Source of the DNA: an uncultured Roseobacter sp.
Lineage (GTDB): Bacteria > Pseudomonadota > Alphaproteobacteria > Rhodobacterales > Rhodobacteraceae
DNA length: 64,000 bases
Direction of reading: 5' to 3'
NCBI RefSeq assembly: GCF_947493125.1
Contig: NZ_CANLQB010000003.1
Span: 248,001-312,000 of the forward strand
The position numbers and the translations under genes are program-made. The notes under the pieces are model-generated. The model searched no databases. It had not been told where the DNA came from and saw only the letters and a program-made list of their open reading frames with translations. Below are positions 7,912 to 20,038 of the stretch, in pieces. Each line of letters starts with the position of its first letter. Position 1 is the stretch's first letter.

Positions 7912-8949
7912 ATGACGATTTCACGCAAAACATTTCTGGGTATGGCCGCTGCCGCAATGATGATTGGCTTGGGCGCGCCTTCTGCCATGGCGCAGGAGGT
8001 TACGCTGCGTCTTCATCAATTTCTGCCGCCACAGGCCAATGTGCCCAAGCTCGTGCTGGATGTCTGGGCCGACAGTGTGGAGGAAGACAGCGGCGGGCGC
8101 ATCAAGGTGGAGCGGTATCCGTCGATGCAGCTGGGCGGCAAGCCGCCTGAGCTTATGGATCAGGCCATCGACGGGGTCGCGGATATCGTCTGGACCGTGG
8201 TCGGATATACGCCGGGTCGCTTCCCCTCGACCGAGGTGTTCGAACTGCCCTTCATGATGACCAATGCAAGGGCCGCCTCCCGCGCCTATTGGGAGATGTT
8301 CGAGACCCACATGAAAGACACGGAATTCAAGGACGTTCATATCCTTGGCACCTGGGTCCACGGACCGGGCTTGATCCATGCCAACAAGGAGGTGCGCAAG
8401 CCCTCCGATATGGACGGTCTGAAGATTCGCGGAGGCTCGCGCCTGGCCAATGCTTTGCTGCAAAAGGTTGGTGCGACACCTGTCGGCATGCCCGTACCCG
8501 CAGTGCCGGAAGGGTTGTCCAAAGGGGTCATCGATGGCACCACGATCCCATGGGAAGTCACAGCGGCCCTGAAGATCCCCGAACTGGTGGATAACCACAC
8601 GGAATTCACTGGAAATGCGCTTTACGTCCTGACCTTCGTGCTGGCCATGAACAAGGACCGTTACGAGGGCCTGCCCGATGATCTGAAGAAGGTGATCGAC
8701 GACAACTCCGGCCTGGAGTTCTCTGTGTTTGCAGGGGGAACGCAGGCCGATGCCGATGGGCCCGCACGTGAGGCAGCCGCTGCACGGGGCAACAACATCG
8801 TCACGCTGACCGAAGAGGAAACCGCTGCGTGGCGCGACGTTGCGCAGCCGATCTACGACGAATGGGTGGCAGAAATGAACGAGAAGGGCATCGACGGGCA
8901 GGCCTTGATTGATGAAGCCCGCATGCTGATCGACAAATACACCGAGTAA
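7912..8949 (+). CDS. dctP: TRAP transporter solute-binding protein (DctP family)
   Basis: This periplasmic receptor belongs to a tripartite ATP-independent transporter. A signal peptide (residues 1-28, ending AMA-QE) leads into a 345-residue DctP fold with the conserved GLKIRGG block, whose Arg normally binds the substrate carboxylate, and the hinge segment near VPEGLSKGVIDG. GGGAGGAA sits just upstream of the ATG. The two membrane subunits follow at once, and the aryl-CoA ligase gene starts 100 bp after the last of them. Uptake of benzoate or a related aromatic acid is therefore inferred from context, not shown by the sequence. Confidence 0.92.
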   Translation: MTISRKTFLGMAAAAMMIGLGAPSAMAQEVTLRLHQFLPPQANVPKLVLDVWADSVEEDSGGRIKVERYPSMQLGGKPPELMDQAIDGVADIVWTVVGYTPGRFPSTEVFELPFMMTNARAASRAYWEMFETHMKDTEFKDVHILGTWVHGPGLIHANKEVRKPSDMDGLKIRGGSRLANALLQKVGATPVGMPVPAVPEGLSKGVIDGTTIPWEVTAALKIPELVDNHTEFTGNALYVLTFVLAMNKDRYEGLPDDLKKVIDDNSGLEFSVFAGGTQADADGPAREAAAARGNNIVTLTEEETAAWRDVAQPIYDEWVAEMNEKGIDGQALIDEARMLIDKYTE

Positions 8950-9009
8950 TCGCGGTATCGGCTGGCCCGCAGTGTCGCACCGCGGGCCTTTCTTCTGACG
9001 GAGCTCTCT

Positions 9010-9510
9010 ATGCATCAGGCCGTGCAACTGCTCGCCCGCGGGACAGCGATCATCGGCGGTCTTGTTCTGGTCGGGCTCGTCGCCCTGACAACTGTGTCAA
9101 CAGCCGGCCGAGAGCTGGGGCTTGGCGAGGTCAACGGCAGCTACGAAATCCTCGAAGCGGGCGTGGCCTTTGCCATCTTCTCCTTCTTTCCGATTTGTCA
9201 GTTGTATGGCGCGCATGCGACAGTTGACATCTTCACATCCAGACTGCCGGACCGGGTGAACCGCGCCATCATTGCGTTTTGGGAGCTCGTCCTGACCGCC
9301 GCACTTCTGCTGATCAGCTGGCGTCTTTATGAAGGGATGCAACGCTATATTGGCAATGGCGAGACGACGCTGTTTCTGCAGTTTCCGGTCTGGTGGGGCT
9401 ATGCGTTCAGCTTTGCAGCCTGCGTCGTGACCTGCATTGTCGCAATCTACTGCGCTGTGCTGCGAGTGCGCGAGGTCGTGAGCGGGCGCACCTTGCTGCC
9501 GACGGCCTGA
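9010..9510 (+). CDS. dctQ: TRAP transporter small membrane subunit (DctQ family)
   Basis: This 166-residue integral membrane protein has four predicted helices (about residues 11-31, 48-68, 90-110 and 128-150) and the DctQ-type motif REL near the end of helix 1. DctQ bridges the substrate-binding protein and the large permease subunit in the inner membrane. GGAG lies at 9000-9003, ahead of the ATG. It sits 60 bp after dctP and 11 bp before dctM, as expected for one transport operon. Confidence 0.9.
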   Translation: MHQAVQLLARGTAIIGGLVLVGLVALTTVSTAGRELGLGEVNGSYEILEAGVAFAIFSFFPICQLYGAHATVDIFTSRLPDRVNRAIIAFWELVLTAALLLISWRLYEGMQRYIGNGETTLFLQFPVWWGYAFSFAACVVTCIVAIYCAVLRVREVVSGRTLLPTA

Positions 9511-9521
9511 GGACCAACGGC

Positions 9522-10841
9522 GTGAGCAACCTTGAACTTGGGTTTTGGTCCTTTCCGGTTCTGCTGCTCATGGTGTTTCTGCGTGCGCCGATCGGGTTGG
9601 CCATGCTTCTGTGCGGCTTCGCGGGGTGGTATTTTGCCATGGGCGGCAATCCCAATGTCCTGCTGAACAAGCTGAAGTCCGAAACCTATACGCAGTTTTC
9701 CAGCTACTCCCTGTCGATCATCCCGATGTTCCTCTTGATGGGGCAGTTCGCGACGCTCTCAGGCATGTCGTCCGCTCTGTTCAAAGCGGCCGAGAGCTTT
9801 TTGGGCCACCGCAGAGGAGGCGTTGCAATGGCGTCGGTGGGGGCCTGTGCAGGCTTCGGTGCGATCTGCGGCTCCTCTCTTGCGACAGCGGCCACCATGT
9901 CCAAGGTCGCCTTGCCTGAGCTGCGCCGTTATGGGTACTCGGGCGGGTTCTCCACCGCTACGCTGGCTGCGGGTGGGACGCTGGGCATCCTGATCCCGCC
10001 GTCGGTGATCCTCGTGATCTATGCAATTTTGACGGAGCAGAACATTGCCAAGCTGTTTCTGGCCGCGTTCATCCCAGGAATCATGGCGGCGCTGGGATAC
10101 ATGCTCACCATCTCGCTCTACGTTCGGCTCTATCCCGATGCCGCGGGCACGCGACCACCTCAGCCCATGTCCGAACGCTGGGCGGCCTTGGCGGAGACCT
10201 GGCCTGTGCTGGTGATCTTCGGGCTGGTTGTCGGCGGTATCTATCTGGGGTGGTTTACTCCGACGGAAGGGTCAGCCATCGGAGCGGCAGGCACCGGGCT
10301 TGTCGCGCTCTTGTCTGGCAGTTTGAATTGGGCCGTCTTCCGCGACAGCCTCTTTGGGACGGCCCGCACCACGGCGATGATCTTCTTCATTGTGCTGGGC
10401 GCGAGTTTTTACAACAGCTTCCTCGCGCTGTCCGGTGTGCCGCAGTTCATGGCCGATTGGGTCCTGGCCCAAGGCTTCAGCGCTTGGTTCGTCCTCTCGG
10501 TGATCCTTGTCTTCTACCTGATCTTCGGCTGTCTGATGGACAGCCTGTCCATGATCCTGCTGACTGTGCCGATCTTCTTCCCGGTGATCGCGGCGATGGA
10601 CTTCGGCATGTCACCGGAGCATCTGGCGATCTGGTTCGGCATCCTTGTGCTGATTGTGGTTGAGGTCGGGCTGATCACACCACCTGTGGGTATGAATCTG
10701 TTCGTCATCAACGCGATGGATCGGCAAACACCCATGACCGAGACCTACAAGGCCGTCCTGTTCTTCGTCGGATCGGACATTGTGCGGGTGATTATCCTCG
10801 TGATGTTTCCGGCGATCACGCTCTTCCTGCTGCCCGGCTGA
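9522..10841 (+). CDS. dctM: TRAP transporter large permease subunit (DctM family)
   Basis: This multi-spanning permease drives sodium-coupled uptake. The GTG at 9522, 11 bp after dctQ, gives 439 residues starting VSNLELGFWSFPVLLLMVF, matching the usual DctM N-terminus. About a dozen hydrophobic helices are visible, along with the family motifs GGxxLGILIPPSVILVIY, GSAIGAAG and LITPPVGMNLFVI. The frame is open further upstream, inside dctQ, but that part does not resemble the family. Its stop codon lies 7 bp before the TGCA-rich operator region of the aryl-CoA ligase gene. Confidence 0.93.
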   Translation: MSNLELGFWSFPVLLLMVFLRAPIGLAMLLCGFAGWYFAMGGNPNVLLNKLKSETYTQFSSYSLSIIPMFLLMGQFATLSGMSSALFKAAESFLGHRRGGVAMASVGACAGFGAICGSSLATAATMSKVALPELRRYGYSGGFSTATLAAGGTLGILIPPSVILVIYAILTEQNIAKLFLAAFIPGIMAALGYMLTISLYVRLYPDAAGTRPPQPMSERWAALAETWPVLVIFGLVVGGIYLGWFTPTEGSAIGAAGTGLVALLSGSLNWAVFRDSLFGTARTTAMIFFIVLGASFYNSFLALSGVPQFMADWVLAQGFSAWFVLSVILVFYLIFGCLMDSLSMILLTVPIFFPVIAAMDFGMSPEHLAIWFGILVLIVVEVGLITPPVGMNLFVINAMDRQTPMTETYKAVLFFVGSDIVRVIILVMFPAITLFLLPG

Positions 10842-12486: not shown

Positions 12487-13304
12487 TGGACTGGAGCGCC
12501 ACACCGTCCTCGCCCCTTGACGTAGGAGGCGTTCGGTTGGAGTACAGTTGCCACGGACCGCACCCTGGTACGGGGCCAACGCTTGTCCTTTTGCACGAAG
12601 GTTTGGGGTGCGTCACGCTCTGGCGGGATGTCCCCACGCGGCTCTCACAGCGAACTGGCTTGGGTGTCTTTGCTTACTCACGGCAGGGATATGGGCAGTC
12701 GGACCCGGTTTCTTTGCCGCGTCCCCTTGACTACCTCACCCAAGAAGCCGTCTCCGTGCTCGGCCCGGTTATCGACGCGGCAGGTCTGGGGGATGTCATC
12801 TTGGTCGGGCACTCAGATGGCGGCACCATCGCTGCAGAATATGCCGGATCGGTCAGCGACCGGCGGGTGCGTGGGCTCATTCTGATCGCGCCGCATTTCT
12901 TTGCGGAACCACAGGGCGTCGCCGCGATTCGTGCTGCGGGGGCGAAGTTTGGATCGGGCGATCTTCGCGACAGGCTTGCCCGCCACCACAAGGATGCTGA
13001 TCGGGTGTTTTGGGGGTGGCACGATGCGTGGACCAACCCGGCCTTTGCCGATTGGGATGTGACCGATGCCATAGACCATTGGCGCGTTCCTGTTCTGGCC
13101 ATCCAGGGCGCGGAGGATGTCTATGGCAGTCTCGCGCAAATCGACGAGATAGAGGCTCGAATCTACGCGCCTCTTGAGACGAAGATCATAGAAGGATGCG
13201 GCCACGCTCCACATGTGGACTGCCCTGAGGCAACTCTGGATACGATCACAGAGTTTTGCGCGCGGTTGCTTCGGCTCGAGCAGGACCATGTCGCTCTGGC
13301 CTGA
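12486..13304 (+). CDS. Alpha/beta-fold hydrolase of the box cluster
   Basis: This 272-residue protein shows the alpha/beta-hydrolase plan: an oxyanion-hole region LLHEGLG, the nucleophile elbow GHSDGG, an acid in QGAEDVYG and the catalytic histidine in GCGHAPHVDCPE. There is no signal peptide, so it is cytosolic. Its ATG overlaps the ligase stop codon, and its end overlaps the DUF309 gene by 17 bp, showing tight coupling. A role in hydrolysing a thioester or lactone intermediate, or in rescuing stalled CoA esters, is plausible but not demonstrated. Confidence 0.85.
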   Translation: MDWSATPSSPLDVGGVRLEYSCHGPHPGTGPTLVLLHEGLGCVTLWRDVPTRLSQRTGLGVFAYSRQGYGQSDPVSLPRPLDYLTQEAVSVLGPVIDAAGLGDVILVGHSDGGTIAAEYAGSVSDRRVRGLILIAPHFFAEPQGVAAIRAAGAKFGSGDLRDRLARHHKDADRVFWGWHDAWTNPAFADWDVTDAIDHWRVPVLAIQGAEDVYGSLAQIDEIEARIYAPLETKIIEGCGHAPHVDCPEATLDTITEFCARLLRLEQDHVALA

Positions 13305-13731
13305 GTTGCGGCCCCACTGGCGACCGCCTCACGCCTATATTCCTGGCAAAACCGCAAGACATCCGGAGGACTGGTTCGATCAGATCAAGGCATCGGTCGC
13401 CGGTGTGCCGCCAAGCCGTTTGCACCATACGGTCGCGTTTCAGACCGGTCTTGCCTACTTTGGGGAGGGGTTTTTCTGGGAATGTCACGAGGTGCTTGAG
13501 GCGGTGTGGATGCGCACCGCCGAGCGCAGCGTCGAACGTGCGCTTGTCGTCGCCTTGATCCAACTGGCTAACGCACGCCTTAAGCTTGAGATGTCGCGAC
13601 CAAGAGCGGCCCGGCGGCTGTGCGATATCGTCGATACTCATCTGTGCCGATGTGAGGGGCACCGACGCGTTCTTGGGGTGGGAATCGCGGATCTGACCAA
13701 GGAACTGACTGAGACACGAGACTCCCTTTAG
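13288..13731 (+). CDS. DUF309 domain protein
   Basis: The ATG at 13288 (MSLWPELRPHW) gives 147 residues. It contains the DUF309 helical signature ECHEVLEAVWM, with a conserved His-Glu pair, followed by LIQLANARLKLEM. DUF309 proteins are small helical proteins of unknown function. It overlaps the hydrolase gene by 17 bp and is the last gene before the boxC promoter region, so it is co-transcribed with the ligase. Co-occurrence with aromatic degradation genes here gives no clear functional clue. Confidence 0.75.
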   Translation: MSLWPELRPHWRPPHAYIPGKTARHPEDWFDQIKASVAGVPPSRLHHTVAFQTGLAYFGEGFFWECHEVLEAVWMRTAERSVERALVVALIQLANARLKLEMSRPRAARRLCDIVDTHLCRCEGHRRVLGVGIADLTKELTETRDSL

Positions 13732-13764: not shown

Positions 13765-13861
13765 CAAGTATCGAGCACCTTAGCGGTGTTTCATGTCGGA
13801 AACTTGTGTACTATCATTCAAAAACTTGTCGGGCTTACCGGCGCAGTCCAAAGGCCAGCCC

Positions 13862-15520
13862 GTGAGCGAGCGCATAGATTTTCAAGTTGATCCAACCAAG
13901 ATGAAGCACTGGAAGGTCACCTACGACGGTGCTGTCGCATATCTCTATATGGATGTTGATGAAGACGGTGGCCTCTTCGAAGGCTACCAGTTGAAACTGA
14001 ACTCCTATGATCTTGGCGTGGATATCGAGCTTGCGGATGTGGTCCAGCGCATGCGGTTCGAGCATCCGGAGGTGAAGGTGGTCGTCCTCGGCTCCGCCAA
14101 GGAGAAGGTGTTTTGCGCGGGTGCAAACATTCGCATGCTGGGCAGTGCGGCGCACGCGCACAAGGTGAACTTCTGCAAATTCACAAATGAGACCCGCAAC
14201 ACCTTTGAGGCTGCCCTGCAGGACAGTGGACAGAACTACATCTGTGCAGTGCGCGGCGCATGTGCGGGTGGCGGTTACGAACTGGCACTGGCGTGCAACC
14301 ATATCATGCTGACAGACGACAGCACCTCGTCGGTCGCCCTGCCTGAAGTCCCCCTCTTGGCCGTCCTGCCGGGCACCGGTGGCCTGACGCGCGTGACCGA
14401 CAAGCGCAAGCTGCGTCGCGACCTCGCGGATGTGTTTTGTTCGGTGGAAGAGGGCGTAAAGGGCAAGCGTGCTGTGGAGTGGCGGTTGGTCGATGAAGTG
14501 ATCCCGAATTCCAAGTTTGAAGAGACAGTGCGCGAGCGCGCGCGAGGTTTTGCGGAGGCGTCGGACAAACCTGATGTCGCGCGGGGCATCACGTTGAAGC
14601 CGCTGGACCGTGTATTTGCCACGGACAGCGTGACCTATTCGACTCTGGACGTGAAGTTTGATCGCCCTGGTCGGCGCGCGGTGATCACGATTCGGGGTCC
14701 GAACGAAGACGCGCCTATTGATATGGCCACCTTTGAAGCGGAGGGGTCCGATGCCTGGATGCTGCGGTGCGCGCGGGAACTGGACGACGCGATCCTGCAC
14801 CTGCGTACCAATGAAGGCGCGCTCGGCCTCATCGAATTCCAGACGATCGGAGACCCGGCGCGCGTGGTCGCGCACGAGGCGCTGTTGCTGTCGAACCGGG
14901 AACATTGGCTCGCCAACGAAGTGGTGTGCCTTTGGAAGCGGGTGCTGAAACGCGTTGATATGACGTCACGCAGTCTTGTCGCGCTGGTCGAGCACGGGTC
15001 TTGTTTCGCGGGCGTTTTGGCCGAACTGCTTTGGGCTGTGGATCGCAGCTACATGATGCTGGATCCATTTGAAGATGATGACAGACGGCTGGCCGCCATC
15101 ACTCTGACACCTGGCAACTTCGGGCAGTATGTCATGAGCAACGGGCTGAGCCGCCTTCAGACCCGGTTCTGGGGCACGCCGGATCACGTCGAGACGATGC
15201 AACCCAAAACAGGCGTCACTTTGGACGCCGAGGCAGCTGAGGTGCTTGGTCTGGTAACCTATGCCTTCGACGATATCGATTGGGAGGATGAGGTACGGCT
15301 GTTCCGCGAAGAACGCGCGAGTTTCTCGGCCGATGCAATGACCGGCATGGAGGCCAACCTGCGCTTTGCGGGACCGGAAACAATGGAAACCCGGATTTTC
15401 GGGCGTCTGACGGCCTGGCAGAACTGGATCTTCCAGCGTCCCAATGCCGTCGGTCCCGAGGGCGCCCTGCAGCGCTATGGAACAGGGATGCGAGCCGTCT
15501 ATGACATGCAACGTGTGTAA
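13862..15520 (+). CDS. boxC: 2,3-epoxybenzoyl-CoA dihydrolase BoxC
   Basis: BoxC cleaves 2,3-epoxybenzoyl-CoA hydrolytically to 3,4-dehydroadipyl-CoA semialdehyde and formate. It is a fused double crotonase of 552 residues. The first half has the BoxC-type blocks LKLNSYDLGVDIELAD, KEKVFCAGANI, GACAGGGYELALACN and LPGTGGLTRVTDKRK. The GTG at 13862 (VSERIDFQVDPTKMKHWK) is preferred because family similarity begins there and AAGG lies 7 bp upstream. An in-frame ATG at 13793 would add 23 residues without a visible ribosome-binding site. An inverted-repeat element separates it from boxB. Confidence 0.93.
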   Translation: MSERIDFQVDPTKMKHWKVTYDGAVAYLYMDVDEDGGLFEGYQLKLNSYDLGVDIELADVVQRMRFEHPEVKVVVLGSAKEKVFCAGANIRMLGSAAHAHKVNFCKFTNETRNTFEAALQDSGQNYICAVRGACAGGGYELALACNHIMLTDDSTSSVALPEVPLLAVLPGTGGLTRVTDKRKLRRDLADVFCSVEEGVKGKRAVEWRLVDEVIPNSKFEETVRERARGFAEASDKPDVARGITLKPLDRVFATDSVTYSTLDVKFDRPGRRAVITIRGPNEDAPIDMATFEAEGSDAWMLRCARELDDAILHLRTNEGALGLIEFQTIGDPARVVAHEALLLSNREHWLANEVVCLWKRVLKRVDMTSRSLVALVEHGSCFAGVLAELLWAVDRSYMMLDPFEDDDRRLAAITLTPGNFGQYVMSNGLSRLQTRFWGTPDHVETMQPKTGVTLDAEAAEVLGLVTYAFDDIDWEDEVRLFREERASFSADAMTGMEANLRFAGPETMETRIFGRLTAWQNWIFQRPNAVGPEGALQRYGTGMRAVYDMQRV

Positions 15521-15616: not shown

Positions 15617-17068
15617 ATGCTTGATCTGATCAATGTCAGCTACGACAGCCAAATACCGAACAATGTCGGACTGAGTTCGGACAGGAAAGTGCTCAAGGCA
15701 CTGGAAAAATGGCACCCGGGTTACATCAATTGGTGGAATGACCTTATCCCGCAGAACTTCCAGGAGAGCATGGTCTATCTTCGGACGGCTGTCTCTGTGG
15801 ATCCAAAAGGCTGGGCCAAGTTCGACTATGTAAAAATGCCGGAATATCGGTGGGGCGTCCTTCTGGCCCCGGCGGTTGAGGACCGTCGCATCCCCATGGG
15901 GGAGCATCTGGGTGAGCTCGCCTGGCAGGAGGTGCCGGGTGAGTACCGCAATATGCTCAAGCGACTGATTGTCATTCAGGGCGATACCGAGCCGGGCTCT
16001 GTCGAGCAGCAGAGATTCCTCGGGCTGACCGCGCCTTCGCTCTATGACATGCGCAATCTCTTCCAGGTCAACGTCGAAGAAGGCCGTCACCTCTGGGCAA
16101 TGGTCTATTTGCTGCAGAAGTATTTCGGACGAGACGGGCGCGAAGAGGCGGATGATCTGCTCGTCCGCTCTTCGGGATCGGATGAGGCGCCGCGGATGCT
16201 GGGCGCGTTCAATGAAGAAACGCCCGACTGGCTCAGCTTTTTCATGTTCACTTACTTCACGGATCGGGATGGAAAGATGCAGCTGGAGAGCCTCGCGCAA
16301 TCCGGCTTCGACCCGTTGAGCCGCACCTGCCGTTTCATGCTGACCGAAGAAGCGCACCACATGTTTGTCGGAGAGACTGGCGTCGGACGGACCATTCAGG
16401 CCACGTTGGAAGCGATGAACAAGGCCGGGCTCACCGATCCCTACGATATCAACAAGGTCCGCGATCTCGGTGTGATCGACCTTCCGACAATCCAGAAGAA
16501 ACTCAACCTGCACTATACGCTGTCGCTCGACCTGTTTGGCCAGGAGGTGTCCACCAACGCGGCGAATGCCTTCAACGCGGGCATCAAGGGGCGCTACATG
16601 GAGCAGCGCATCGACGATGATCACAAGCTCCAGAATGACACATATGCGGTGACGTCGATCAAGGATGGCAAGATCTTGACAGAAGACGTTCCAGCGCTGA
16701 CGGCAATCAATATGCGGCTGCGGGACGACTACGTGCGCGATGCGGCAGGCGGCGTAGGCCGCTGGAACAAGGCCATCGCGAAGGCCGGCGTTCAGTTCGA
16801 ACTCAAGCTGCCACACGAAGGCTTCAACCGGCAGATCGGGGTTTTTTCTACTGTCACCGTTGATCCGGACGGCACTATCATTTCCGCCGACGATTGGGCG
16901 AGGCAACGCGATGCCTGGCTGCCGACCAAGGCTGACGGAGACTTCATACAGTCGCTGATGGTTCCCTGCTATGAGCCGGGGCAATACGCCTCCTGGATTG
17001 CACCGCCAAAGGTTGGCATCGACAACAAGCCCGGCGATTTCGAATACGTGAAACTGCACATGGCTTGA
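15617..17068 (+). CDS. boxB: Benzoyl-CoA 2,3-epoxidase catalytic subunit BoxB
   Basis: BoxB is the diiron oxygenase that epoxidises benzoyl-CoA at C2-C3 using O2 and electrons from BoxA. The 483-residue protein keeps the expected carboxylate/histidine ligands: E125 (DTEPG), E155 and H158 (EEGRH), D216 (FTDRD) and E245/H248 (EEAHH). GACAGGAGGAC directly precedes the ATG at 15617. It lies between boxC and boxA, and the length and ligand set indicate a functional enzyme. This step makes the pathway strictly aerobic. Confidence 0.96.
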   Translation: MLDLINVSYDSQIPNNVGLSSDRKVLKALEKWHPGYINWWNDLIPQNFQESMVYLRTAVSVDPKGWAKFDYVKMPEYRWGVLLAPAVEDRRIPMGEHLGELAWQEVPGEYRNMLKRLIVIQGDTEPGSVEQQRFLGLTAPSLYDMRNLFQVNVEEGRHLWAMVYLLQKYFGRDGREEADDLLVRSSGSDEAPRMLGAFNEETPDWLSFFMFTYFTDRDGKMQLESLAQSGFDPLSRTCRFMLTEEAHHMFVGETGVGRTIQATLEAMNKAGLTDPYDINKVRDLGVIDLPTIQKKLNLHYTLSLDLFGQEVSTNAANAFNAGIKGRYMEQRIDDDHKLQNDTYAVTSIKDGKILTEDVPALTAINMRLRDDYVRDAAGGVGRWNKAIAKAGVQFELKLPHEGFNRQIGVFSTVTVDPDGTIISADDWARQRDAWLPTKADGDFIQSLMVPCYEPGQYASWIAPPKVGIDNKPGDFEYVKLHMA

Positions 17069-17154
17069 TGTGCATCAAAGTATTCGACCGGCAGGCCGAT
17101 TTGACTGTTGTGAACTGTCCACTGTGACTTTGGCGCCTTAAGGAGATTTGACCC

Positions 17155-17298
17155 ATGCAGACTCAAGTGACACCGTTACATCCACAACCCAGGCCAGCCT
17201 GTATCGGCTGTACCGAGTGCAAAGGCCTTTGCCGGGATATCCTCGACCTTGCGGTTTTGCCCGAGGCCATTTTGAAGCGACCCGCCGCCAGCCCATGA
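17155..17298 (+). CDS. 47-residue Cys-rich protein coupled to boxA
   Basis: The ATG at 17155 follows a strong AAGGAG (17140-17145) and encodes 47 residues ending in TGA at 17296-17298, which overlaps the boxA ATG as ATGA. The product has a compact cysteine cluster, ACIGCTECKGLCRD (C-x2-C-x2-C-x3-C), followed by a short hydrophobic helix LDLAVLPEAIL. The pattern resembles half of a ferredoxin or a small zinc knuckle. The boxA ATG itself has no good ribosome-binding site, so translation of boxA may depend on this ORF. No family is recognised. An electron-transfer or cofactor-assembly role for BoxA is only a suggestion. Confidence 0.65.
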   Translation: MQTQVTPLHPQPRPACIGCTECKGLCRDILDLAVLPEAILKRPAASP

Positions 17299-18491
17299 CC
17301 GCCCCCGTCAAACAACATCTGATCGATCCGGAGATCTGCATCCGCTGCTATACCTGCGAGATGACCTGCCCCATCGGAGCGATCCAGCACGACGATACAA
17401 ACGTGGTTGTGGACCCGGACACATGCAACTTCTGCATGGATTGCATCCCGGTCTGTCCCACCGGGTCCATCGACGAATGGCGTGTGGTGGCGCAACCATA
17501 TACTCTCGAACAGCAGTATGCCTTTGACGAACTTCCAGAGCAGGACGATATCGCGCTTCCAGACGCATCCGAACCAGCGGAGATCGAGGCGCATGAAACG
17601 GCCATCGCTGCGTTGTTGGCCGAGGCTCACAAGGGGACGGGTGGCAAGACGCGCGCGCCCGCATCCGCATCCAAACCGACAATCAACCTCTATGCGCTTG
17701 GCAATCCGGCGACCGCGACCGTGCAGGGCAACTACCGCTTGACGGACGCCGATGGCGAGAACGACGTGCGTCATGTCATTCTCGATCTGGGAGCACAACC
17801 GTTTCCTGTCCTGGAAGGGCAGAGCATAGGGATCGTTCCACCCGGTGAGGACGCGGACGGGAAACCACATTTGCCACGGCTCTATTCCGTCTCGAGCCCA
17901 CGCGACGGCGAGCGGCCCGGCTTCAACAATATCTCCCTGACAGTCAAACGGGAGCGCCAGGGTGTCTGCTCTAACTACGTCTGCGATCTGCAGAAGAGCG
18001 ATACGGTCCAGATCACTGGGCCGTTCGGGTCGACGTTTTTGTTGCCGTCCGATCCGACCGCACATCTGCTGATGATTTGCACCGGGACAGGGTCCGCTCC
18101 GTTTCGCGGCTTCACGATGCGCCGCCAGCGTGAGACACCCGGTGCCCGCGACAGTCTCACGTTGGTGTTCGGAGCGCGCAGTGCGCGGGATCTGCCGTAT
18201 TTCGGGCCGCTCAAGAAAGTGCCCGATCAGTTTATGCGCAAGTCATTTGCGTTCAGCCGTGCCGTGGATCAACCCAAGCAATACGTGCAGGACAAACTTC
18301 GGGAACAGTCCGATGTGGTGGCCTCGGTGCTCGGTCGGGACAAAACGCACGTCTACATTTGCGGGCTTAAGGCGATGGAAGAAGGTGTGGAGGACGCGCT
18401 GCAGGACATTGCCGAGGCGTCGGGTACAGACTGGGCCGCGCTGCGCCAGCAGATGCGCGAAGAGGGCCGGTATCATGTCGAGACGTATTGA
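17295..18491 (+). CDS. boxA: Benzoyl-CoA 2,3-epoxidase reductase subunit BoxA
   Basis: BoxA carries electrons from NADPH to BoxB. The ATG at 17295 gives 398 residues. The N-terminus holds two 4Fe-4S ferredoxin motifs: CIRCYTCEMTCP (C15, C18, C21, C25) and CNFCMDCIPVCP (C44, C47, C50, C54). After a linker of about 90 residues comes an FNR-type flavin domain with RLYSVSSPR for FAD and CTGTGSAPFRGF for NADPH. The C-terminus, GRYHVETY, is typical of the FNR family. The start overlaps the stop of the small Cys-rich ORF, indicating translational coupling. Confidence 0.95.
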   Translation: MTAPVKQHLIDPEICIRCYTCEMTCPIGAIQHDDTNVVVDPDTCNFCMDCIPVCPTGSIDEWRVVAQPYTLEQQYAFDELPEQDDIALPDASEPAEIEAHETAIAALLAEAHKGTGGKTRAPASASKPTINLYALGNPATATVQGNYRLTDADGENDVRHVILDLGAQPFPVLEGQSIGIVPPGEDADGKPHLPRLYSVSSPRDGERPGFNNISLTVKRERQGVCSNYVCDLQKSDTVQITGPFGSTFLLPSDPTAHLLMICTGTGSAPFRGFTMRRQRETPGARDSLTLVFGARSARDLPYFGPLKKVPDQFMRKSFAFSRAVDQPKQYVQDKLREQSDVVASVLGRDKTHVYICGLKAMEEGVEDALQDIAEASGTDWAALRQQMREEGRYHVETY

Positions 18492-18587
18492 GGTCTGGCG
18501 CGCCTCCGGGTTTCTGTCGGACCTGCGGGTGCCGACCCATCCGGTATATGGCGTCGGTTCGCGCAGACGCGTGTGGGGGAGGGCGGC

Positions 18588-19478
18588 GTGACCGAAACAC
18601 CGCTCGTCGCCGACCCTTCGCAGCAGCTGAAGAACCGTGTTGCGGCCCGTGTCCGCAGCCAGCGCAAGGCGCAAGGCCTGCCGCGCCGGGTGCTCTCGGA
18701 GATGTCGGACGTGTCCCCCCGCTATCTCGCGCAGTTGGAGGCGGGGGAGGGAAACATCTCGATCGCGCTGCTGCACCGGATCGCTCTGGCGCTTGGTCTT
18801 CCGGTCGACAGCCTGCTGTCCGAGGATGCTCCTCAAGACCGCGAGGCGCAGCGCATTGGCGAGCTATATCGCGAGGCCTCTCCGGACGTTCAAAGGGCGG
18901 TCCGGGGGTTGCTGGCACCTCAAAATCCAGCGGCCCTGCGGGCAGGCCGGATTTGCCTGATCGGCCTGCGTGGTGCGGGAAAGTCCACCTTGGGCAAGCT
19001 GGCCAGCGAAGCCCTCAATCTGCCCTTTGTTGAGCTCAATCGCGAGATTGAGCGCGAGACCGGTATGCCGCTGGCCGAGGTGATGGCGTTTTATGGACAG
19101 GAGGGATATCGCGCGCTGGAGGCAGACGCCATTTCTCGCGTGGTCGCGACGCACGACCGCCTCGTTCTGGCCGTGGCCGGCGGGCTGGTTGCCGAGGAGG
19201 CGACCTATGAGCAGGTGTTGCAGCGGTTCCACACCGTTTGGCTGAAGACATCTCCTGTGGAGCATATGCAGCGGGTTCGCGCGCAAGGTGACTTACGCCC
19301 TATGCAGGGCAACCCGGCTGCTATGGAGCAGCTCAAGTCGCTTCTGGATGCGCGCGCACCGCTTTATCGGCGCGCCGATGCGCAGGTGGACACGTCGAGC
19401 AAGACGGTCAAGTCATCGCTGAATGATCTGCTCAAAGTGATTGCCTCAAAGGGCTTTCTCGATGGGGCAGCGGAGTGA
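18588..19478 (+). CDS. boxR: BoxR/BzdR-type transcriptional regulator
   Basis: This regulator joins an N-terminal helix-turn-helix (residues about 17-70, Cro/CI type) to a shikimate-kinase-like C-terminal domain with an intact P-loop GLRGAGKST (residues 126-134). BzdR and BoxR of this architecture repress benzoate genes and are released by benzoyl-CoA. The GTG at 18588 has GGGGAGGG a few bases upstream and gives 296 residues. It sits 96 bp after boxA, and its stop overlaps the next gene (GTGA). The TGCA clusters upstream of the ligase and boxC genes are its likely targets. Confidence 0.93.
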   Translation: MTETPLVADPSQQLKNRVAARVRSQRKAQGLPRRVLSEMSDVSPRYLAQLEAGEGNISIALLHRIALALGLPVDSLLSEDAPQDREAQRIGELYREASPDVQRAVRGLLAPQNPAALRAGRICLIGLRGAGKSTLGKLASEALNLPFVELNREIERETGMPLAEVMAFYGQEGYRALEADAISRVVATHDRLVLAVAGGLVAEEATYEQVLQRFHTVWLKTSPVEHMQRVRAQGDLRPMQGNPAAMEQLKSLLDARAPLYRRADAQVDTSSKTVKSSLNDLLKVIASKGFLDGAAE

Positions 19479-20038
19479 CCGAGGCTCAGATCGCAGCGCA
19501 GTTGCAGGACAGTTTGAATGCTGTTGCCGACGATCTTCTCTTTCGGATGACCACGCCCTGGGAGTTAGACGCGGTCATGACCGATTTCGGTTTTGCAGCT
19601 GGCGTCTGCGCCCTGCAGGATGCCGTGGGGTTGGATACCATATGCGCGCAGCGTCAGAAGACTGGTCACACTCCGACACCGGTCCTGACGCGGATGGTTG
19701 CGGAAGGCCGCCTTGGGCGTGCGGTGGGGGTTGGATGGTATCGGTATCCGGGCGGTGGCGGCCCAGTGGTCGATCCTCTGGTCGAAGATCTGTTGCGGGA
19801 GGAAGCATGGTTTGCTCAAGGTGAGCGCAAGGAAGTTTCTGACGCTGCGCTCATGACCGGACTGCTCGCCGGCCTGCTGCGCGAGGGTCTGTCACTTATG
19901 AGTGCCGGCGCCGCACCTGACCAGATTGACCGGGTGAGCTGTGACCGGCTTGGCTTTCCACGTGCGAAGGGCGGGCTTCTCAGCCATGCCCGCGCGGCCG
20001 GTCTCGTTGCCGTCGGAGATGCGTTTGCCCGCGTTTGA
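19475..20038 (+). CDS. Stand-alone 3-hydroxyacyl-CoA dehydrogenase C-terminal domain protein
   Basis: This protein of 187 residues matches the C-terminal half of 3-hydroxyacyl-CoA dehydrogenases. The first part has DFGFAAGVCALQDAVGLD and RLGRAVGVGWYRYPGG; the second has LREGLSLMSAGAAPDQIDRV and RLGFPRAKGG, as in FadB/PaaH tandem domains. No Rossmann NAD-binding domain precedes it, and the upstream frame belongs to boxR. The GTG start overlaps the boxR stop (GTGA), so it is the last gene of the box cluster. It could partner a separate dehydrogenase or bind an acyl-CoA, but no function is established. Confidence 0.75.
   Translation: MTEAQIAAQLQDSLNAVADDLLFRMTTPWELDAVMTDFGFAAGVCALQDAVGLDTICAQRQKTGHTPTPVLTRMVAEGRLGRAVGVGWYRYPGGGGPVVDPLVEDLLREEAWFAQGERKEVSDAALMTGLLAGLLREGLSLMSAGAAPDQIDRVSCDRLGFPRAKGGLLSHARAAGLVAVGDAFARV

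What the first reader, a model, noticed from the sequence alone, without database searches (positions are those of the whole stretch)
17155..17298. Small Cys-rich ORF coupled to boxA inside the benzoyl-CoA epoxidase operon
A 47-residue ORF has a strong AAGGAG site, a dense cysteine cluster (C-x2-C-x2-C-x3-C in ACIGCTECKGLC) and a stop that overlaps the boxA ATG. The boxA start itself lacks a good ribosome-binding site. It may be a missing small component of the BoxAB system (Fe-S carrier, assembly factor or metal chaperone) or a translational regulator that depends on cysteine supply. I know of no described function.
Basis: partly seen in the sequence, partly recalled or inferred. Interest (0 to 1): 0.7.

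Follow-up and report, generated by a model that had tools for sequence, protein, structure and literature searches.

The report
Small four-cysteine protein in benzoate operon
A tiny, unnamed protein with four fixed cysteines is encoded just before the reductase gene of a benzoate-degrading operon in many marine Rhodobacteraceae; it is a real, conserved gene that probably binds an iron-sulfur cluster, but its job is untested.

Summary
The 47-aa ORF (17155-17298) is a real gene of an unnamed family. A homologue lies upstream of boxA at 61 of 80 loci. Four Cys and one Gly are invariant in the aligned members, close pairs show dN/dS 0.22, and its stop overlaps the boxA start (ATGA) in 48 of 63 junctions. 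In 394 family genomes, 56 of 74 boxA genomes carry it.

18 of 74 boxA genomes lack it. Seven sampled genomes keep an intact copy without boxA or boxB, each time as the last gene before a convergent neighbour. So it is neither required by BoxAB nor a cysteine-dependent leader of boxA. Its Cys spacing is that of a [4Fe-4S] motif, but Cys-fixed shuffles score nearly as well, so cluster binding is inferred.

Most likely it is a Fe-S (or other metal) accessory protein of aromatic-acid operons, perhaps an electron shuttle between scarce BoxA and abundant BoxB. Its translation probably carries ribosomes onto boxA. Boldest open reading: a half-ferredoxin working as a homodimer in aerobic bacteria.

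The parts
17138..17145 (+). Shine-Dalgarno TTAAGGAG of the small ORF
   Evidence: sequence; family anti-SD pairing median -7.6 kcal/mol, n=67, starts partly chosen for SD
17155..17298 (+). small four-Cys ORF, 47 aa plus stop
   Evidence: translation; alignments of 67 and 88 rows; dN/dS 0.22, pN<pS in 35 of 35 close pairs
17200..17232 (+). C-x2-C-x2-C-x-G-x-C motif (residues 16-26)
   Evidence: 4 Cys + Gly invariant in 67 of 67 and 88 of 88 rows (rows were selected partly on the Cys motif); motif dN/dS 0.08
17295..17298 (+). ATGA overlap of small-ORF stop and boxA start
   Evidence: sequence; same 4-nt overlap in 48 of 63 junctions
17295..18491 (+). boxA, benzoyl-CoA epoxidase reductase subunit
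   Evidence: TIGR03224, 552 bits against cut-off 459
15617..17068 (+). boxB, di-iron epoxidase subunit
   Evidence: TIGR03225, 896 bits against cut-off 499
13793..15520 (+). boxC, 2,3-epoxybenzoyl-CoA dihydrolase
   Evidence: TIGR03222, 918 bits against cut-off 712
18573..19478 (+). boxR-like regulator (HTH + shikimate-kinase domain)
   Evidence: Pfam HTH_3 and SKI; the name BoxR is recalled
13213..13731 (+). DUF309 gene, kept beside the small ORF in box-less G266
   Evidence: Pfam PF03745; synteny
7912..10841 (+). TRAP transporter dctP-dctQ-dctM, often near the small gene
   Evidence: Pfam DctP, DctQ, DctM; dctP homologue within 25 kb of 43 of 62 tested copies

Best explanation
The ORF encodes a genuine small protein (45-61 aa among the 67 aligned members) that binds a metal centre, most likely one [4Fe-4S] cluster, through its invariant C-x2-C-x2-C-x-G-x-C loop. 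It serves aromatic-acid (chiefly box) operons of Rhodobacteraceae as a soluble accessory: an electron shuttle or cluster donor that helps the scarce reductase BoxA serve the abundant oxygenase BoxB, without being essential. In cis, ribosomes that finish it are handed to boxA through the ATGA overlap, which probably sets a modest BoxA level. Shown: gene, conservation, purifying selection, operon position, overlap, dispensability. Inferred: metal type, electron or cluster role, coupling and its efficiency.
For: 61 of 80 boxA loci carry it upstream of boxA. 56 of 74 boxA genomes against 10 of 320 without boxA hold it (Fisher p 1.7e-41, not corrected for kinship). Four Cys and a Gly are invariant (rows partly selected on the Cys motif). 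dN/dS is 0.22 overall and 0.08 in the motif, pN<pS in 35 of 35 close pairs. The Cys spacing is that of 4Fe-4S motifs, and C1-C2 reads C-[VIL]-G-C in most rows. Four copies that are not beside boxA sit right after boxB (G220, G390, G213, G080). [quoted passage not shown] Coupling: 48 of 63 ATGA overlaps, weak SD at those boxA starts.
Against: Cys-fixed shuffles match ferredoxins in PDB about as well: best E 5.7e-4 for shuffles against 9.4e-4 and 3.5e-4 for the two family profiles. Shuffles also match Fer4 Pfam models, some more often than the family does (Fer4_9 4 of 45 against 2 of 67; Fer4_8 2 against 0). Both AlphaFold2 models are poor (pLDDT 67, pTM 0.33 and 0.29) and show helices, no ferredoxin strands. 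18 of 74 boxA genomes do without it. Seven intact copies live without boxA or boxB. The SD difference between boxA starts with and without the ORF is not significant on phylogenetically independent pairs.
Confidence: 0.42

Rival explanations
1. It is a stand-alone metal- or redox-sensing regulator (or stress accessory) of catabolic operons, not a partner of BoxAB; box operons are only its commonest home.
For: Seven family-sample genomes without boxA and boxB keep an intact copy beside varied genes (TRAP dctM, DUF309, FAA hydrolase, HpcH aldolase, PBP-like regulator, AraC regulator). In the window's genus, G266 (searched genome-wide for boxA and boxB) and two genomes seen only locally (G795, G790) have TRAP-DUF309-small with no box genes beside it. 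Median dN/dS of these three is about 0.25.
Against: No Pfam DNA-binding domain and no constant neighbour; 54 of 67 copies sit directly upstream of boxA. Synonymous sites are near saturation in the three-genome comparison.
Confidence: 0.27
2. It is a structural zinc-binding mini-protein, the CxxCxGxC loop acting like a zinc knuckle.
For: The invariant Gly between C3 and C4 gives CxxCxG, seen in zinc ribbons (recalled); one of 67 members weakly hits Anti-TRAP in Pfam (E 0.04); no Pro after C4 in 82 of 88 rows.
Against: C-x2-C-x2-C-x3-C with C-[VI]-G-C is usual for 4Fe-4S sites (recalled). LdhH and Fer4_18 models match 25 and 13 of 67 real members against 1 and 0 of 45 shuffles; members are related, so these are not independent counts.
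Confidence: 0.15
3. It is a leader ORF whose translation, not its product, regulates boxA (for example cysteine-supply attenuation or pure coupling).
For: Strong SD, ATGA overlap, weak boxA SD; cluster of Cys codons.
Against: In 7 of 7 intact box-less family-sample copies the next gene is convergent, so there is nothing to regulate. Amino-acid-level constraint covers the parts on both sides of the Cys loop in close pairs (dN/dS 0.32 and 0.23), though a cruder run on distant pairs gave 1.02 and 0.86 there. 15 of 63 boxA junctions do not overlap, with gaps up to 333 nt.
Confidence: 0.06
4. Chance ORF.
For: None beyond its small size.
Confidence: 0.01

Closest known systems
Bacterial 4Fe-4S ferredoxins (Pfam Fer4 clan; PsaC in PDB)
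   Same: C-x2-C-x2-C-x3-C spacing with a hydrophobic residue and usually Gly between C1 and C2
   Different: One motif only, no Cys-Pro after it in 82 of 88 rows, no predicted beta strands, invariant Gly between C3 and C4, no Pfam or NCBIfam match near a curated cut-off; Cys-fixed shuffles score similarly
Semidoxins / PD1 half-ferredoxins (PMC12648291; abstract, outline and passages seen)
   Same: A very short protein with a single 4Fe-4S-type Cys motif, encoded as its own gene
   Different: Paper: natural ones about 30 aa and so far only in thermophilic anaerobes; here 45-61 aa, in Rhodobacteraceae beside an O2-using enzyme; dimer and cluster untested
Benzoyl-CoA epoxidase BoxAB
   Same: Encoded between boxB and boxA, overlapping boxA
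   Different: Described system has two proteins, BoxA and BoxB (PMC4498308, passages); BoxA already carries its own two 4Fe-4S clusters; the small protein is absent from 6 of 6 sampled boxA loci outside the class
Cysteine-attenuation or metal-stalling leader peptides (recalled; no paper fetched)
   Same: Small Cys-rich ORF upstream of and overlapping an enzyme gene
   Different: Kept as terminal gene with no downstream target in box-less genomes

Membership tests
4Fe-4S ferredoxin (Fer4) | profile match to Fer4-type models at curated cut-off | tested here: not met
   best E 0.0019 among 67 members; Cys-fixed shuffles reach 0.0022
4Fe-4S ferredoxin (Fer4) | C-x2-C-x2-C-x3-C followed by Pro | tested here: not met
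   spacing present in all rows, Pro after C4 in 6 of 88
4Fe-4S ferredoxin (Fer4) | beta-alpha-beta fold | tested here: inconclusive
   AlphaFold2 pLDDT 67, helices only, pTM 0.33 and 0.29
Semidoxin (half-ferredoxin homodimer) | single-motif gene product, no second motif | tested here: met
   four conserved Cys in one motif; 65 of 67 members have exactly four Cys
Semidoxin (half-ferredoxin homodimer) | homodimer with two [4Fe-4S] clusters | not testable with these tools
   needs purified protein; no multimer prediction here
BoxAB component | obligate co-occurrence with boxA/boxB | tested here: not met
   18 of 74 boxA genomes lack it; 7 genomes have an intact copy without boxA or boxB
BoxAB component | physical interaction or rate effect on BoxAB | not testable with these tools
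   needs purified proteins
Leader-peptide regulator of boxA | always upstream of a regulated gene | tested here: not met
   7 of 7 intact box-less family-sample copies followed by a convergent gene

The most novel reading that the evidence does not exclude
A natural half-ferredoxin: a single-motif 4Fe-4S protein that homodimerises, each subunit lending its fourth cysteine to the partner's cluster, and shuttles electrons from BoxA to BoxB in aerobic marine bacteria, contrary to the view that such proteins are so far found only in thermophilic anaerobes.
Probability: 0.1. Interest if true: 0.78.

Novelty: new variant of a known kind. Interest (0 to 1): 0.48.

Why it matters
It adds an unnamed, conserved third gene to the boxB-boxA junction of a widespread marine bacterial family, where sources give at most automatic names such as 'hypothetical protein' or 'ferredoxin'. 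It makes testable how scarce BoxA serves abundant BoxB, and whether minimal one-motif Fe-S proteins work in aerobes.

Tried and rejected
P0001 alone as database query: no candidate. tblastn of P0001 and of L087's protein against plasmids: no match. Origin from BoxA's own ferredoxin motifs: the family scores no better than shuffles on a BoxA-derived motif matrix, but that matrix is narrow because BoxA motifs hardly vary, so this says little. Resemblance to ferredoxins as proof of Fe-S: rejected after the shuffle control. Phenylacetyl-CoA epoxidase as the partner in box-less genomes: paaA in 4 of 7 box-less carriers and 5 of 8 non-carriers, no association. TRAP transporter as the partner: dctP homologue within 25 kb of 43 of 62 copies against 6 of 17 boxA-without-small genomes (the two frameshifted copies and three carriers left out are not in the 62, and G119 is not in the 17), but contigs are broken, kinship is not corrected, and 4 of 7 box-less carriers lack it nearby. 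SD compensation at boxA when the ORF is absent: raw Fisher p 0.016 or 0.0016, not significant on independent pairs. A first dN/dS run over 705 distant pairs gave 0.73 overall, 1.02 for the N-terminal part, 0.86 for the C-terminal part and 0.24 for the Cys motif; I distrust it because of saturation and gaps, and used 35 gapless pairs of 60-99% identity instead, a choice that itself favours low dN. Structure search (fold search) was not run because both models are low-confidence. Rfam: no family at gathering score in 16900-17500. Paper searches: no listed title or abstract start concerns a small protein in the box operon; the papers were not all read, and the library lacks most subscription journals.

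Full report
WHAT IS THERE. The ORF at 17155-17298 encodes 47 aa with one C-x2-C-x2-C-x3-C loop. It has a strong ribosome-binding site at 17138-17145, and its TGA overlaps the boxA ATG as ATGA. It lies between boxB (15617-17068) and boxA (17295-18491), with boxC upstream and a boxR-like gene downstream. An ORF of at least 30 aa with that Cys pattern came up in 2 of 20,000 dinucleotide shuffles of the junction. The window is part of a 4.83-Mb genome; its nearest BoxA relatives are Roseobacter.

A REAL FAMILY. A scan of GTDB genome contigs with BoxA kept the best 80 of 237 loci. A homologue of the small ORF lies within 700 nt upstream of boxA in 61 of the 80 (first seen). In 67 aligned members and in 88 rows that include database proteins, the four Cys and one Gly between C3 and C4 are invariant. 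A Pro is nearly invariant in the first set and invariant in the second; an Arg at position 5, a Gly and a Leu reach 90% in the second. Rows were first collected partly by the Cys pattern, which favours Cys invariance; the profile search of whole genomes did not require it. 43 of the 67 have exactly 26 residues before the first Cys; the window's group has 13 to 15. Over 35 gapless pairs of 60-99% identity, dN/dS is 0.22, in the Cys loop 0.08, and pN<pS in 35 of 35. A cruder run over 705 distant pairs gave 0.73 overall and 1.02 for the N-terminal part, so the N-terminal part is at best loosely constrained. Pfam and NCBIfam have no family for it.

DISTRIBUTION. Of 394 family genomes, 71 have a profile match at E<=0.001. 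I counted the 66 genomes with E<=3.5e-9 (67 copies) and left out five weaker ones (G001, G093, G139, G302, G376). 74 genomes have boxA at E<=1e-60, one of them partial (G119). 56 have both, 18 boxA only, 10 the small gene only, 310 neither. 54 of 67 copies lie 12-352 nt upstream of the boxA match on its strand. Two copies look frameshifted, G009 (beside boxA) and G143, and are included in these counts. For 17 of the 18 boxA-only genomes I fetched the boxA locus and found no copy upstream of boxA; G119 was not fetched. In 385 genomes drawn from the class, only the window's own genome gave a strong match; four others lay at 1.8e-4 to 8.7e-4. Of 13 boxA loci returned by a phylum draw, the six from outside the class and four from another family of the class have none in their 1.5-kb flanks. 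Two plasmid box loci (Mycetohabitans, Rhizobium) have none either. On a BoxA tree the trait needs 16 changes, 8 of them forced by well-supported branches, against a shuffled mean of 29.5. It has therefore been gained or lost repeatedly, and BoxAB can evidently do without it.

WITHOUT BOX GENES. Ten carriers have no boxA. Two of these (G220, G390) have boxB with the small gene right after it; eight have neither boxA nor boxB, and of those eight seven copies are intact and one (G143) is frameshifted. Two boxA genomes (G213, G080) have boxB-small on one contig and boxA on another, and G383 has a second copy between a CoA ligase and a boxR-like gene. In the seven intact box-less cases the next gene (ORFs of 90 aa or more) points towards the small gene: a DUF2165 homologue, an AlkZ-like glycosylase (four cases), a 4HBT thioesterase, a urate-oxidase-like protein. 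The gene before it varies: DUF309, dctM (two cases), HpcH/HpaI aldolase, PBP-like regulator, FAA hydrolase, AraC regulator. In one genome (G220) TRAP-DUF309-boxB-small-boxR lies at an AlkZ-LacI site like that of four box-less genomes, so I infer that box genes were lost there while the small gene stayed. In the window's genus 16 of 19 genomes have the gene, three of them (G266, G795, G790) in a TRAP-DUF309 setting without box genes beside it; only G266 was searched genome-wide for boxA and boxB. Median dN/dS among these three is about 0.25, with synonymous sites near saturation.

TRANSLATION. The overlap is exactly 4 nt in 48 of 63 junctions (the window, 61 GTDB loci and frameshifted G009); the other 15 have gaps of 0 to 333 nt. 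Anti-SD pairing medians: small-ORF start -7.6 (n=67; starts were chosen partly for their SD, so this figure is flattered); boxA start -3.45 with overlap (n=48), -3.5 without overlap (n=15), -5.8 where the ORF is missing (n=36); background -3.0 (n=990). The boxB-boxA distance is 242 nt with the ORF and 85 nt without (medians). The excess of good SD sites where the ORF is missing (Fisher p 0.016 or 0.0016) is not significant on independent pairs. Coupling is thus likely in the overlapping loci; compensation after loss is not shown.

METAL. The profile's best PDB matches are PsaC and ferredoxins, at E 9.4e-4 (67 rows) and 3.5e-4 (88 rows), over the Cys loop only. A control of 45 Cys-fixed shuffles reaches 5.7e-4 in PDB and matches several Fer4 models, Fer4_9 and Fer4_8 even more often than the family does, so the match is chiefly Cys spacing. 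A remainder favours the real family: LdhH 25 of 67 against 1 of 45, Fer4_18 13 of 67 against 0 of 45; members are related, so these counts are not independent. AlphaFold2 gives low-confidence models with a helix after the Cys loop, or helices on both sides, and no strands.

READING. [quoted passage not shown] A soluble Fe-S carrier or cluster donor encoded between them, with BoxA translated by coupling, would fit. This is inference. The box-less copies say that the protein is useful elsewhere too, which favours a general Fe-S or redox accessory over a dedicated BoxAB subunit.

NOVELTY. PMC12648291 (abstract, outline and passages) describes designed half-ferredoxins that dimerise, and says that natural ones appear rare and are thus far only found in thermophilic anaerobes. 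The present family is a candidate of that sort beside an oxygenase, but dimer, cluster and fold are untested and the usual Cys-Pro is mostly missing (present in 6 of 88 rows). Paper searches listed no title or abstract start about such a protein.

CHECK.

Noticed in passing
L119 (G390) and L124 (G220): boxB and the small gene without any boxA hit at E<=1e-60 in the genome (G390 is 99% complete, G220 75%); which reductase serves BoxB there is unknown.
   Followed up: partly
window 13213-13731; L114, L118, L123, L124: A DUF309 gene recurs in box clusters and stays beside TRAP and the small gene where box genes are absent (L114); its role there is unknown.
   Followed up: partly
L121 (G383 C48): Second small-gene copy in a TRAP - CoA ligase - small - boxR-like cluster with no boxA or boxB found in the stretch, perhaps for another aromatic acid.
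   Followed up: no
window 19475-20038: Short gene after boxR matching only the C-terminal domain of 3-hydroxyacyl-CoA dehydrogenase (PF00725).
   Followed up: no
L115 (G106): Formate-dehydrogenase-like genes, an FAA hydrolase, a TRAP transporter and the small gene lie in a row without box genes (the dehydrogenase call is by eye from the translation).
   Followed up: no
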